Assembly (NCBI GenBank): GCA_025358395.1
Contig: JANYJT010000260.1
Span: forward strand, 1 to 34,663
Length of the DNA stretch: 34,663 nt
From: Bacteroidia bacterium
Lineage (GTDB): Bacteria > Bacteroidota > Bacteroidia > Bacteroidales > Prolixibacteraceae
Direction: 5' to 3'
Positions within the stretch are counted from its first letter, which is position 1; every line of letters starts with the position of its first letter. The notes beneath the pieces are model-generated. The model ran no database searches. It saw only the letters and a list, made by a program, of their open reading frames with translations, and was not told the DNA's origin. A program made the translations under genes and the position numbers. Positions 1,822 through 5,424 of this stretch are shown one piece after another.

Positions 1822-4800
1822 CTATTCAACAATCCGGTATTTCTCCTTTTCACCGAGCCTTAAAGATAATTCGTTCACTTCCCTTTTAAGGTCAATCATT
1901 TTCATCTCCCTGCCTACCATGAGGTTATTAAATCGTTCCAGTTCCTTTGATTTTTCCATGATGGCATTTTCTGCCAATTTACGGTCAGTGATATCCTGAA
2001 TCGTCGTAATAAAATAAAGCGGATTCTGTTCAAAATCCATTTGCAAAACTGTACTTAAATCCACCCAAATAAGATGACCGTCCTTGTGAAGGTAGCGCTT
2101 CTCCCAGCGTCTTGATACATATTCTCCGGAGATTATGGATCGGATATATTCTTTATCTTTTTCTATATCATCAGGGTAAGTGATATCCTGCCAATTGATA
2201 TCTAAAAACTCTTCATCGGTGTATCCTAAAATTTGACGGAATGTTTTATTTGTTTTAATCTTTCCTCCAATTGCAGTAATTGATTTACCCACAGTAGAAT
2301 ATTCAAAAATATTCCTAAAATATTCCTCACTAAGGCGCATGGCTTCCTCTGCTTTTTTCCGTTCGCTAACTTCTTCCTGAAGCGCATTATTGACAATCAC
2401 CAATTCTTCAGTTCGCTCTCGTACGCGATTTTCGACTTCAACATAAGCTCGTTGCAACTCACTCTGTGTATAGACAAGCTTATCTTTTTCTAATTCCAGC
2501 TCATCATTCAACAATTTCAGCTGCCTGGCACTTGGAATAGCCAATAACCTTGGAAGATATGGCCAAACCACGACAGCGGTTGCCAGGGAGATTAACGCGC
2601 AAATGGAATCGACAATGGCCTGCCACCAATTTACTTCCCACCAGAGTCCGACAACATGCATAATATGTGTAGTACCACAAGCCAGAATGAACAATCCAAA
2701 CAGAAAAAGAATCCAGGTAAAGGGCATGTCCTTTCTTTTCCTGACAAAAACGATCAGGAAGAACGGAATTGAAGCATAAGAAATGGCAATGATTGCATTG
2801 GAAAGTGCCATTGCCATCATCAGAACCGGAGTCATGTTTCCGGGATTTGTACCTTTGATTTCCATGTTTGCAGCCGGCATCAGGAGCATCGGCCCAATAA
2901 TCAGAATGGCCAAGGCGATTGCCGGCGCGATAATTCGCGGAATGAGCTCTGCCGCTTGTCGCAAAACCGTCTTTTTAGGTGCAAAGGTCTGCACTTTGTA
3001 TGCTTTTAAACGAAGACTGTTGGTTACCACGAAGATTGAACTGAAAGCCATGGCTCCTGCCGCGAACATCGGACTAAGGAGTCCGTAGGCAGCAATTGGA
3101 ATGAGTGCCACATTGTAAAAAAGTGCCCAGATAAAATTCTGAATGATGGTTTGGGATGTTCCACGGGATAGGGATATGGCCCGGCCGACACCGGAAAGGT
3201 CGCCACTGATCAGGGTGATGCCGGCAGCTTCCATGGCAATGTCGGTTCCGGTTCCAAGCGCGATGCCAACATCGGCTTGCGCCAGGGCGGGTGCATCATT
3301 GATGCCATCGCCAACCATTGCCACCACCGGATGTGCATAATTTCCCATAGAACCGGACTCCTGTAGTTTCCTGATTGCCTCAGCCTTTTCGCCGGGCAAT
3401 ACTTCTGCCATGACCCTTGAAATGCCTACCTGCTTCGCGATGGCTTCAGCAGATAATTGATTATCACCGGTAATCATGACCAAATCCAGTCCCAGTTTTC
3501 GCAAATCGGCAATCGCCTCAACCGCGCCCGGCTTCAAGGTATCTGAAACGGCTATGATGCCTATCACACGAACTGGATCATCGCCATCATCCACCCTGGA
3601 AGCAACAATCATGGCCGTCTTACCTTCTGATTGCAGCCTGATAATGTCAGCCTGGATTTCTTCGGTAGATAGTCCCTCATTCTTCATCATCCTTAGATTG
3701 CCAATCGAGACAAGCCGGTCATCTACCTTAGCCCTGATTCCGAATCCGCCGAAGGCACGAAACTGCTGCGGTTCAGATAGTTTCAATTTCTTCTCTGCGG
3801 CTTTTGCGACCATCGATTTGCCCAATGGATGTTCCGAACCCTTCTCCGCACTAGCGGCCAGTCTCAAAATTTCATCGACAGAATTGTCGCCTACCGGAAG
3901 AATATCTGTCACCTGCGGTTCACCACGGGTAATAGTGCCGGTCTTATCAAACACAACAATGTTCAATTTACCGGCACGCTCGAGGACTTCACTGTTTTTG
4001 AACAAAATACCATTCAAGGCACCTTTGGAAGTACCTACCATGATGGCGGTAGGCGTGGCGAGTCCTATGGCACAAGGACATGCGATCACAAGTACGGCAA
4101 TTGCGTTGATCATGGCGATGGTCCAATCGGCCTGCGCCACATAGATCCATCCGGCAAAAGTAAATAAGGCAATTGCAATGATAACGGGGACGAAATATTT
4201 GCCGATCTCATCCGCCAACTTCTGTATCGGGGCTTTGCTTCCCTGGGCGGTTTGAACCATCTTGACAATCTGCGACAATGTGCTGTTTTTCCCAACCCTG
4301 GTGGCCTCAAAACGAATCAACCCTTCACGGTTAATGGTGGCACCGATGACCTCATCTCCGGGACCTTTGCTTACCGGCATAGACTCACCTGTGATCATGG
4401 ATTCCTCTATCGCGGATCGCCCTTCGGTGATGATTCCATCGACCGGCACTTTCTCTCCCGGACGAACGATGATGGTGTCACCAACTTCTACCAGCTCAAT
4501 GCTGATCACTGTTTCGACTCCGTCACGAAACACGCAGGCGGTTCTGGCTCGCAATCCCATCAAAGCTTTCAACGCTTCGGACGTTTTGCCTTTGGCTTTG
4601 GTTTCAAGGTATTTTCCGAGCCTGATCAGCGTAATAATGGCGGCCCCTGTTTCGAAGTAAACATTGGGACTGTCAATGATTCCAATGGCAACGAACAGGC
4701 TTGAAAAATAAGCGACAGATGAACCCATCATGATCAGAACATCCATGTTGGCGCTGCCATTGCGCAGGCTTTTAAATGCACCGACATAAAAATGCCATCC

Positions 4801-5424
4801 AACGACAAACTGCACCACCGTAGCGGCAAAAAGCATGGCAAAAAGGTCATATTGAAAACCTGCCAGTTTGAAATCGCGGGCCATGCTGAAGATTATCAGC
4901 GGAACGGTAAATACAAGGCCGGTGATTAAAAGGGACTTCTGTTTTCTGAGCTCTGTAGCCCTGGCATTGGCTTCAACCTCTTCAACATCTTCCGAAGCAC
5001 CGGCCTGAACAAGGTCAAATCCTGCTTTGCGGATAATAGCTGCCAGTTCGGAGATTGAGGTCATACCGGGAATATATTCCATGGATATATGTTCATTGCC
5101 AAAGCCAACCTGAGCAATTAAGACCCCATTCTGTTTGGCTAGAAGCTTTTCGAGCATCAATGCGTCTGTCGAATCCCGCATCCCGGTAACGGGCAGTTCA
5201 ATTTTACCCGTAGCCACATCATAACCGATGTGTCTGACAGATGCAATAATCTGATTGTCGCTAAGCTGAGAAGAATCAAATGTGATGTTCAATTTCTCCC
5301 CGGCAAAATCGACATTTGCCTCAGATACACCAGGGAGTTTGCGTATGCCGGTCTCAATTGCCCGGGCGCAATTGCTGCAGGACAAACCCGTTACCGGCAT
5401 GATGGAACTTTTGATTGGCTTCAT
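1822..5424 (-). CDS. Cu(I) P1B-ATPase fused to ethylene-receptor-like domain, coiled coil and PAS
   Basis: A 1200-residue fusion. Residues 1-~810 are a full copper exporter ATPase: HMA domain with C16-S-N-C19, a second HMA-like domain without CxxC (~78-140), TGES 345-348, CPC 449-451, phosphorylated D493 (DKTGT), H532-P533, TGDN 652-655, GDGIND 705-710, and the Cu(I) signature Y770-N771 plus M792/S795/S796. CopA normally ends here. Instead there is an added helix (~829-849), a Met-rich loop (M846, M849, M854, M864, M869, M870, M872), then three helices (~866-895, 904-929, 935-960) resembling the ETR1 ethylene-binding domain: SYASIP (882-887), FGLFILACGTTH (909-920) with C916 and H920 matching ETR1 Cys65 and His69. 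ETR1 Asp25 aligns with N876. A coiled coil (~966-1030), PAS/PAC (~1031-1153) and a coiled tail follow. There is no HisKA or HATPase. The ATPase call is very secure; the receptor-domain call rests on motif alignment from memory. Confidence 0.93.
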   Translation of the reverse strand: MKPIKSSIMPVTGLSCSNCARAIETGIRKLPGVSEANVDFAGEKLNITFDSSQLSDNQIIASVRHIGYDVATGKIELPVTGMRDSTDALMLEKLLAKQNGVLIAQVGFGNEHISMEYIPGMTSISELAAIIRKAGFDLVQAGASEDVEEVEANARATELRKQKSLLITGLVFTVPLIIFSMARDFKLAGFQYDLFAMLFAATVVQFVVGWHFYVGAFKSLRNGSANMDVLIMMGSSVAYFSSLFVAIGIIDSPNVYFETGAAIITLIRLGKYLETKAKGKTSEALKALMGLRARTACVFRDGVETVISIELVEVGDTIIVRPGEKVPVDGIITEGRSAIEESMITGESMPVSKGPGDEVIGATINREGLIRFEATRVGKNSTLSQIVKMVQTAQGSKAPIQKLADEIGKYFVPVIIAIALFTFAGWIYVAQADWTIAMINAIAVLVIACPCAIGLATPTAIMVGTSKGALNGILFKNSEVLERAGKLNIVVFDKTGTITRGEPQVTDILPVGDNSVDEILRLAASAEKGSEHPLGKSMVAKAAEKKLKLSEPQQFRAFGGFGIRAKVDDRLVSIGNLRMMKNEGLSTEEIQADIIRLQSEGKTAMIVASRVDDGDDPVRVIGIIAVSDTLKPGAVEAIADLRKLGLDLVMITGDNQLSAEAIAKQVGISRVMAEVLPGEKAEAIRKLQESGSMGNYAHPVVAMVGDGINDAPALAQADVGIALGTGTDIAMEAAGITLISGDLSGVGRAISLSRGTSQTIIQNFIWALFYNVALIPIAAYGLLSPMFAAGAMAFSSIFVVTNSLRLKAYKVQTFAPKKTVLRQAAELIPRIIAPAIALAILIIGPMLLMPAANMEIKGTNPGNMTPVLMMAMALSNAIIAISYASIPFFLIVFVRKRKDMPFTWILFLFGLFILACGTTHIMHVVGLWWEVNWWQAIVDSICALISLATAVVVWPYLPRLLAIPSARQLKLLNDELELEKDKLVYTQSELQRAYVEVENRVRERTEELVIVNNALQEEVSERKKAEEAMRLSEEYFRNIFEYSTVGKSITAIGGKIKTNKTFRQILGYTDEEFLDINWQDITYPDDIEKDKEYIRSIISGEYVSRRWEKRYLHKDGHLIWVDLSTVLQMDFEQNPLYFITTIQDITDRKLAENAIMEKSKELERFNNLMVGREMKMIDLKREVNELSLRLGEKEKYRIVE
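2545..2838 (-). other. Ethylene-binding-domain-like segment inside the ATPase fusion
   Basis: This is the part encoding residues 863-960 of the fusion. It aligns without gaps to the ETR1 region around Asp25-His69: Y883 with Tyr32, I886 with Ile35, P887 with Pro36, F909 with Phe58, G910 with Gly59, F912 with Phe61, I913 with Ile62, C916 with Cys65, H920 with His69. The codons for C916 (2677-2679) and H920 (2665-2667) read TGT and CAT. The position of Asp25 is N876 (codon 2797-2799). The loop between the first two helices (RKRKD, 895-899) is positively charged, consistent with a cytoplasmic side. The alignment was made by eye against a remembered ETR1 sequence. Confidence 0.8.

What the first reader, a model, noticed from the sequence alone, without database searches (positions are those of the whole stretch)
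1822..5424. Copper pump fused to an ethylene-receptor-like domain and PAS in one protein
A complete CopA-type Cu(I) ATPase is joined to three helices that align without gaps to the ETR1 ethylene-binding domain, including the copper ligands (C916, H920) and Y883, I886, P887, F909, G910, F912, I913. In Arabidopsis the CopA homologue RAN1 supplies copper to ETR1. Here pump and receptor-like domain share one chain, followed by coiled coil, PAS and coiled tail. This would be a sensor that loads its own metal. I do not know of a described example, but cannot search. The domains and motifs are seen; ethylene or copper sensing is inferred.
Basis: partly seen in the sequence, partly recalled or inferred. 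Interest (0 to 1): 0.93.

Follow-up and report, generated by a model that had tools for sequence, protein, structure and literature searches.

The report
Copper pump with built-in copper receptor
In this bacterium and 149 related proteins found here, a copper pump of the exporter family continues in the same chain into the kind of membrane domain with which plants sense ethylene, changed at the same three positions in every one, so the protein likely reports on copper being pumped out rather than on ethylene.

Summary
The fusion is real. Window 1822-5424, minus strand, encodes a complete P1B-1 (CopA-type) pump, one extra helix, an ETR1_N domain (E=3.7e-30), a coiled coil and a PAS. It is a recurrent family that I found nowhere described: 150 proteins in capped search lists join pump and domain, at least 105 with a histidine-kinase motif in the chain. 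Here a kinase is the next gene, 27 bp downstream.

The ethylene reading is weakened. All 150 fused domains have Asn at ETR1 Asp25, Asp at Lys91 and an extra His at Asn72; 141 have Cys at Thr94. In 120 unfused bacterial domains these are Asp (118), Lys (119), never His, and Thr (120). Cys65, His69 and Tyr32 are kept. Best reading: the ethylene-receptor fold was rebuilt into a Cu(I) sensor tied to its own pump (a copper transceptor). Support: strong conservation of the domain; the fused pump is the only one over the CopA cut-off in 8 of 13 genomes; site residues changed in 3 of 6 proteins that lack the pump, against 4 of 150 (all Ile to Val) with it. Cu(I) binding, hand-over and signalling are inferred. 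A low-affinity ethylene or CO sensor is not excluded.

The parts
1822..5424 (-). whole gene: pump + extra helix + ethylene-receptor-type domain + coiled coil + PAS + tail, 1200 aa (P0001)
   Evidence: ORF and translation; Pfam; NCBIfam
5218..5394 (-). HMA metal-binding domain with CxxC (C16, C19), residues 11-69
   Evidence: PF00403; motif
5005..5199 (-). second HMA-like region without CxxC, residues 76-140
   Evidence: seen in the translation; strand/helix order in the model; not a Pfam hit
3001..4947 (-). P1B-1 pump core, residues 160-808: CPC 449-451, DKTGT 493-497, GDGINDAP 705-712, YN 770-771, MAFSS 792-796
   Evidence: TIGR01511 579 bits; motifs; best solved relatives are CopA and ATP7B
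2878..2940 (-). extra membrane helix between pump and receptor domain, residues 829-849
   Evidence: hydropathy peak 831-849; model helix 820-848
2536..2823 (-). ethylene-receptor-type domain (ETR1_N), three helices, residues 868-963
   Evidence: PF25487 E=3.7e-30; three helices, block pLDDT 76-88 in the 815-990 model, 50-66 in the whole-chain model
2797..2799 (-). N876, position of ETR1 Asp25
   Evidence: N in 150 of 150 pump-fused, D in 118 of 120 free; codon checked
2677..2679 (-). C916, position of ETR1 Cys65 (copper ligand)
   Evidence: C in 150 of 150 and 120 of 120; codon
2665..2667 (-). H920, position of ETR1 His69 (copper ligand)
   Evidence: H in 150 of 150 and 120 of 120; codon
2656..2658 (-). 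H923, position of ETR1 Asn72: extra His one turn from H920 on the same helix face
   Evidence: H in 150 of 150, in none of 120 free; wheel angles; codon
2608..2610 (-). D939, position of ETR1 Lys91
   Evidence: D in 150 of 150; K in 119 of 120 free; codon
2599..2601 (-). C942, position of ETR1 Thr94: extra Cys, near copper if the ETR1 model holds here
   Evidence: C in 141 of 150 (T in 9), T in 120 of 120 free; T94 in the copper-near ethylene cluster, PMC6586836 passages
2302..2529 (-). long helix / coiled coil after the third helix, residues 966-1041
   Evidence: model helix 966-1041
1963..2331 (-). PAS domain, residues 1032-1154
   Evidence: TIGR00229 6.9e-25; PF08447
1825..1962 (-). C-terminal helical tail (VGREMKMIDLKREVNEL...), residues 1155-1200
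   Evidence: translation; mostly low pLDDT
28..1794 (-). next gene downstream, 27 bp away: membrane hybrid kinase (DUF4118-HisKA-HATPase-REC), the likely partner
   Evidence: Pfam, translation; a kinase gene is also next in the two other kinase-less chains examined, L007 and L010
5609..7369 (-). upstream hybrid kinase (HisKA-HATPase-REC), no membrane family hit by Pfam; possible partner
   Evidence: Pfam, translation

Best explanation
The gene encodes a P-type ATPase of the Cu(I)-exporting family continued in one chain by an ethylene-receptor-type membrane domain and a PAS domain, and it likely works as a copper transceptor: the pump would move Cu(I) to the periplasmic side, the receptor domain would bind that Cu(I), and the change would pass through coiled coil and PAS to a kinase. 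Shown by sequence: complete pump motifs, one extra hydrophobic helix before the domain, the kept ligands C916 and H920, and the altered positions (D25N, N72H, K91D, and T94C in 141 of 150) that set the pump-fused clade apart. Inferred: the ETR1-like orientation of the domain (charged loop inside, copper half outside); that H923 and C942 join C916 and H920 in holding Cu(I), so that the metal is the signal and not a cofactor with a free place for ethylene; that Cu(I) comes from the pump in the same chain or its dimer mate; that the output kinase is in the same chain in most relatives and in trans in the window (gene 28-1794).
For: (1) Split of the site: N876, H923, D939 in 150 of 150 pump-fused proteins, C942 in 141; in 120 free domains D 118, never H, K 119, T 120 (domain located by a profile; searches agree). 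(2) One clade: 25 fused and 5 pump-less rows against 46 free rows, support 100/100, stem 1.4 changes per site. Within 90 fused rows the domain keeps a mean pairwise identity of 0.81, like pump block 226-470 (0.81), above the P/N domain (0.67), below pump TM7-8 (0.91). (3) In the published ETR1 model copper has 2-3 protein ligands and 1-2 water places, and Thr94, the place of C942, lies in the copper-near ethylene cluster (PMC6586836 passages). C916, H920, H923 lie within 60 degrees on one helix face. (4) Dependence on the pump: of 6 proteins that lack it, 3 differ at 8 site positions (P887T; P887L+H923R; P887L+H920Y), against 4 of 150 with it, all I886V (Fisher p=0.001, rows not independent). 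(5) In 8 of 13 genomes the fused pump is the only protein over the CopA cut-off; all 13 have a heme-copper oxidase-family subunit I. (6) Two-component wiring: 105 of 150 chains carry a HisKA-like motif (108 with a slightly different cut); in 3 of 3 kinase-less chains examined the next gene, 18-27 bp away, is a kinase; in 8 of 11 chains with a kinase the next gene is a 121-148 aa response regulator.
Against: No metal binding was measured and no model coordinates could be read, so the positions are not shown to meet in space. In ETR1, Thr94 mutation does not affect ethylene binding, only signalling. Nine of 150 have T at 942. Three of the 6 proteins without pump (P0002, P0017, P0022) keep the whole site, so the domain may serve without a pump in cis; one of 11 contig-cut members (P0026) has I886N. 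No copper gene was recognised beside the fused gene in the loci read, though neighbours were only partly typed. ETR1 with Asn at 25 is reported functional at about 100-fold lower affinity (review PMC13012798 citing Aman et al. 2025).
Confidence: 0.55

Rival explanations
1. It is an ethylene (or other olefin, or CO) sensor that loads its own copper: the pump fills C916/H920 and the gas binds the metal, with low affinity because of Asn at 25.
For: Profile match far over the cut-off; six of the seven residues needed for ethylene binding are kept; D25N of ETR1 is reported functional at about 100-fold lower affinity (PMC13012798); RAN1 supplies ETR1 in plants (passages).
Against: Asp25 and Lys91 are lost in 150 of 150 fused domains while free bacterial relatives keep them; mutation of D25 is also reported to abolish binding in ETR1 (PMC11819568 passages); an added His and Cys could fill the open copper places.
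Confidence: 0.2
2. The added domain mainly regulates the pump (a copper-dependent brake or a dimerisation device); the PAS/kinase part reads something else, such as redox state.
For: Pumps without the domain survive (L005, 92% identical over the pump core and sister of the window's; L009 with most of the domain deleted); cydAB lies directly upstream of the fused gene in L093 and L094, which would suit a respiratory signal.
Against: Metal-site residues are invariant in 150 pump-bearing proteins and stay intact in P0002 and P0017 without pump; a kinase motif follows in at least 105 of 150 chains.
Confidence: 0.15
3. The three helices are only a membrane anchor linking an old pump to a PAS/kinase chain, without ligand.
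For: The cytosolic PAS part differs widely between members (mean identity 0.45).
Against: 24 invariant positions between 874 and 950 in 150 proteins, including N876, Y883, P887, C916, H920, H923 and D939.
Confidence: 0.06
4. Assembly or gene-calling artefact that joins two genes.
For: Many members come from metagenome bins (record titles).
Against: Recurrence in 150 proteins, some on contigs of 4-6 Mb; single open frames without internal stops in 10 of 10 fused genomes reached through loci.
Confidence: 0.01

Closest known systems
CopA / P1B-1 Cu(I) ATPases (CopA, ATP7B, plant RAN1/HMA7)
   Same: HMA with CxxC, CPC, DKTGT, YN and MxxS motifs, TIGR01511 over cut-off; best solved relatives CopA and ATP7B
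   Different: Known members end soon after TM8 (recalled; the Bacteroidota pumps L005, L012, L013 do); here four more hydrophobic helices and a PAS chain follow
Ethylene receptors: ETR1, SynEtr1, AzoEtr1 (ETR1_N, PF25487)
   Same: Three-helix domain with Tyr32, Ile35, Pro36, Ile62, Cys65, His69 kept; PAS and (in most relatives) kinase follow; small response regulator gene next door as for AzoEtr1 (PMC11819568 passages)
   Different: Asp25 to Asn, Lys91 to Asp, Asn72 to His, Thr94 to Cys (9 of 150 keep Thr); N-terminal pump; domain internal, not at the N terminus
Transporter-kinase transceptors: CbrA (SLC5/STAC kinases), Ks-Amt5
   Same: Transporter domain and two-component signalling in one polypeptide (PMC13022988 and PMC9100948 search listings; PMC5764959 abstract)
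   Different: Those use an SLC5 symporter or Amt domain; here an ATP-driven metal pump is joined to a separate metal-site domain. In the window the kinase is a separate gene
CusS-type periplasmic copper sensor kinases
   Same: Two-component copper sensing at the periplasmic side (PMC10100754, search listing)
   Different: CusS has a periplasmic sensor domain and no pump in the chain (recalled)

Membership tests
P1B-1 Cu(I)-exporting ATPase (CopA) | family profile over curated cut-off | tested here: met
   TIGR01511 579 bits, cut-off 397
P1B-1 Cu(I)-exporting ATPase (CopA) | Cu(I)-site motifs CPC, YN, MxxS and catalytic DKTGT, GDGxND | tested here: met
   motif meaning recalled
P1B-1 Cu(I)-exporting ATPase (CopA) | ATP-driven Cu(I) export | not testable with these tools
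   needs a transport assay
Ethylene-binding domain family (ETR1_N) | family profile over curated cut-off | tested here: met
   PF25487 104.5 bits, cut-off 27
Ethylene receptor | seven residues required for ethylene binding (list recalled: D25, Y32, I35, P36, I62, C65, H69) | tested here: not met
   six of seven; D25 is N876
Ethylene receptor | Lys91 partner of Asp25 | tested here: not met
   D939; D in 150 of 150 fused
Ethylene receptor | saturable ethylene binding | not testable with these tools
   needs a binding assay
Ethylene receptor | copper ligands facing a common pocket with helix 1 | tested here: inconclusive
   three helices predicted but no coordinates are given; helix-face angles agree
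Transporter-kinase transceptor | transporter and histidine kinase in one polypeptide | tested here: not met
   kinase motif in at least 105 of 150 fused chains; the window's chain has no kinase domain, its next gene is one
Transporter-kinase transceptor | signal depends on substrate or transport | not testable with these tools
   needs a kinase assay

The most novel reading that the evidence does not exclude
A P-type ATPase transceptor: the pump hands exported Cu(I) directly to a receptor in its own chain, an ethylene-receptor fold rebuilt into a four-ligand (Cys2His2) copper-flux sensor, so that the cell reads how much copper is leaving it. The pump and receptor that plants keep apart (RAN1 and ETR1) are one molecule here, and copper sensing and ethylene sensing are two uses of one site.
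Probability: 0.4. Interest if true: 0.92.

Novelty: new variant of a known kind. Interest (0 to 1): 0.8.

Why it matters
How ETR1 receives Cu(I) from RAN1 and how its copper site turns ligand binding into a signal are called open questions in a 2026 review (PMC13012798, passages and section 6). A natural single-chain pump-receptor would make hand-over testable with fixed stoichiometry, and the free and fused clades give a natural contrast of four residues between an ethylene-type and a likely copper-type site. It would also be the first transceptor built on a P-type ATPase that I found, and would give many poorly studied Bacteroidota a copper-sensing system now named only as a Cu(I) exporter.

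Tried and rejected
Rejected: artefact (recurs in 150 proteins). Rejected as first reading: ethylene receptor of the ETR1 kind (D25 and K91 lost). Tried: telling genes beside the fused gene. Only cydAB in L093 and L094 stood out (2 loci); neighbours were typed by Pfam in part only. Tried: P-type ATPase genes (DKTGT motif) near free ethylene-receptor-type kinases, to see whether pump and receptor were neighbours before they fused: 0 of 14 free Bacteroidota loci, 20 kb each; the other 5 of 19 were not fetched. Tried: structures. Whole-chain model, alignment of 90 of the 92 fused proteins known then, mean pLDDT 75 with the domain at 50-66; residues 815-990 alone 82. Foldseek of the domain against PDB: 0 matches at E<=0.001; no solved chain by sequence at E<=1. 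Tried: promoter patterns; about as many hits as in shuffles. Genome surveys reached one phylum and one order of Bacteroidota, so wider spread rests on record names.

Limits of the sets: each protein search lists only its best 120 (of 2305, 360 and 261 matches). The free set came from one query and may miss intermediates; divergent free domains in Bacteroidota include Asn at 25 (L069) and loss of both ligands (L054). Rows dropped: of 301 listed proteins 288 have the domain by profile; the 13 others are hits without it. Of the 288, 150 have the pump, 11 are cut inside it, 7 lack it, 120 are free. P0101 starts inside the domain and was left out of the pump-loss count; P0022 was kept in it although its start is unsure. 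P0018 and P0025 are kin in the tree, so the losses are fewer than the rows.
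Full report
1. What is there. The ORF 1822-5424 lies on the minus strand and encodes 1200 residues. Pfam and NCBIfam give HMA, a complete Cu(I)-type P-type ATPase, ETR1_N at 868-963 (3.7e-30, 104.5 bits, cut-off 27) and PAS. Pump motifs are intact: CxxC 16-19, CPC 449-451, DKTGT 493-497, GDGINDAP 705-712, YN 770-771, MAFSS 792-796. A hydrophobic helix at about 829-849 links pump and receptor domain. 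If the eight pump helices end in the cytoplasm, this one extra crossing puts the receptor domain in the ETR1 orientation; the Arg/Lys-rich loop 894-906 would be inside and the copper half outside (topology inferred).

2. It is a family. Of 120 proteins listed, 92 have pump and domain in one chain; with a search seeded by a distant member the number is 150 of 301 listed, the window's own included. The lists are capped, so this is a lower bound. Record names include Bacteroidales, Prolixibacteraceae, Ignavibacteriae and Gemmatimonadaceae; where a source names the protein it is mostly a Cu+-exporting or heavy metal translocating ATPase. In an even draw of 395 Bacteroidota genomes 21 have ETR1_N, 3 of them fused; in 393 genomes of one order 6 are over the cut-off, of which G001, G007 and G662 were seen to be fused and the other three were not read. 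None of 14 control genomes has the domain.

3. The site was rebuilt. A profile made from both kinds finds the domain in 288 of 301 proteins. Pump-fused, n=150: N876 150, Y883 150, C916 150, H920 150, H923 150, D939 150, C942 141 (T 9). Free, n=120: D 118 and N 2; C and H 120 each; position 923 S 69, A 18, G 18, N 7, E 6, D 2; K 119 and M 1; T 120. In ETR1 numbers these are D25N, N72H, K91D and T94C. AzoEtr1 was shown to bind ethylene and keeps Asp and Lys (PMC11819568 passages); its homologue from another A. brasilense strain, L055, is of the free type. A tree of 76 domains puts the 25 fused and 5 pump-less members on one side of one branch, support 100/100, length 1.4 (108 columns, the four columns not taken out).

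4. What the changes would do. Passages on ETR1 give Cu(I) held by Cys65 and His69, a predicted Asp25-Lys91 contact, about 100-fold weaker ethylene binding for Asp25 to Asn (loss of binding for other Asp25 mutation), copper with 2-3 protein ligands and 1-2 water places in a model, and Thr94 in the copper-near ethylene cluster, where its mutation touches signalling but not binding. In the fused family the open place could be filled by H923 and C942, and the Asp-Lys contact is gone. I infer that the metal became the signal. C916, H920 and H923 lie on one helix face, and D939, C942, S946 on one face of the next. The models show three helices but no coordinates could be measured.

5. Selection and coupling. 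Over 1500 random pairs of 90 fused proteins the domain keeps 0.81 identity, like pump block 226-470 (0.81), below pump TM7-8 (0.91), above P/N (0.67), TM1-2 (0.71) and PAS (0.45). Pumps without the domain exist: L005 (92% identical over the pump core, sister of the window's protein, SH-aLRT 99, inside the fused clade), L009 whose tail runs from the first residues of helix 1 straight into the later part of helix 3, L012 and L013; the place of these last three is weakly supported. So the pump can live alone, and at least for L005 by loss of the domain. Of 6 proteins without pump, 3 differ at site positions: P0018 P887T; P0025 P887L and H923R; P0075, which still carries a stump of the first HMA, P887L and H920Y. 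With the pump, 4 of 150 differ, all I886V. Fisher p=0.001, and 0.0014 when 11 contig-cut members are counted as pump-bearing, one of which, P0026, has I886N. P0002, P0017 and P0022 keep an intact site without pump, which speaks against strict dependence.

6. Role in the cell. In 8 of 13 genomes with a fused gene it is the only protein over the CopA cut-off; five have a second (most are bins and may be incomplete). All 13 have a heme-copper oxidase-family subunit I. In L093 and L094 cydAB, a copper-free bd oxidase (recalled), lies directly upstream (Pfam on L093; L094 by like gene starts), which would fit a switch by copper state but rests on two loci.

7. Output. 105 of 150 chains carry a HisKA-like motif (108). 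In 8 of 11 loci with a kinase in the chain the next gene is a 121-148 aa response regulator, Pfam-checked in all eight (L002, L003, L004, L006, L008, L014, L093, L094). Exceptions: L001 (M28 peptidase), L011 (REC-PAS-kinase-REC hybrid) and L102 (TonB-dependent receptor). In the three loci with no kinase domain in the chain (window, L007, L010) the next gene is a kinase 27, 18 and 22 bp away. The window protein therefore likely signals in trans to the DUF4118 hybrid kinase at 28-1794; its upstream neighbour 5609-7369 is a second hybrid kinase.

8. Known or not. No paper with such a fusion was found in ten full-text searches; one review of bacterial ethylene receptors says that they show a wide range of output domains and does not hold the word ATPase (PMC7700396, passages; its figures are not held). 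The library lacks most subscription papers. Transporter-kinase fusions are known as a kind (CbrA, Ks-Amt5), and so are ETR1_N proteins, so I call this a new variant of a known kind. It should not be filed as an ethylene receptor, since Asp25 and Lys91 were tested and not met; it may still work by the same copper-site principle.

Noticed in passing
window 15348-24552: Most of a heme pathway in one run of minus-strand genes: ferrochelatase, HemN-like radical SAM, URO-D, class-III aminotransferase (HemL-like), ALAD, a HemC-HemD fusion and glutamyl-tRNA reductase.
   Followed up: no
window 7366-9644: Corrinoid methyltransferase-like trio (DUF1638, URO-D/MtaA-like, B12-binding) directly upstream of the hybrid kinase 5609-7369.
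   Followed up: no
window 24889-27804: A two-component pair next to a cation diffusion facilitator (CDF) transporter.
   Followed up: no
window 1825-1962: C-terminal tail VGREMKMIDLKREVNEL..., with like endings in P0004, P0029 and (weaker) P0105, all fused chains without kinase motif: possibly a docking element for a kinase in trans.
   Followed up: partly
L093 and L094: cydA and cydB (bd oxidase) directly upstream of the fused pump-receptor-kinase gene, same strand.
   Followed up: partly
L054 (same genome as L001): A second, divergent ETR1_N domain in a genome with the fused gene; it has Asn at position 25 and neither copper ligand.
   Followed up: no
P0075: Natural deletion: stump of the first HMA joined directly to the receptor domain, pump gone, and the copper ligand His920 is Tyr.
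   Followed up: yes
window 33102-33830: DUF6577 protein with a weak AbiEi-antitoxin match.
   Followed up: no
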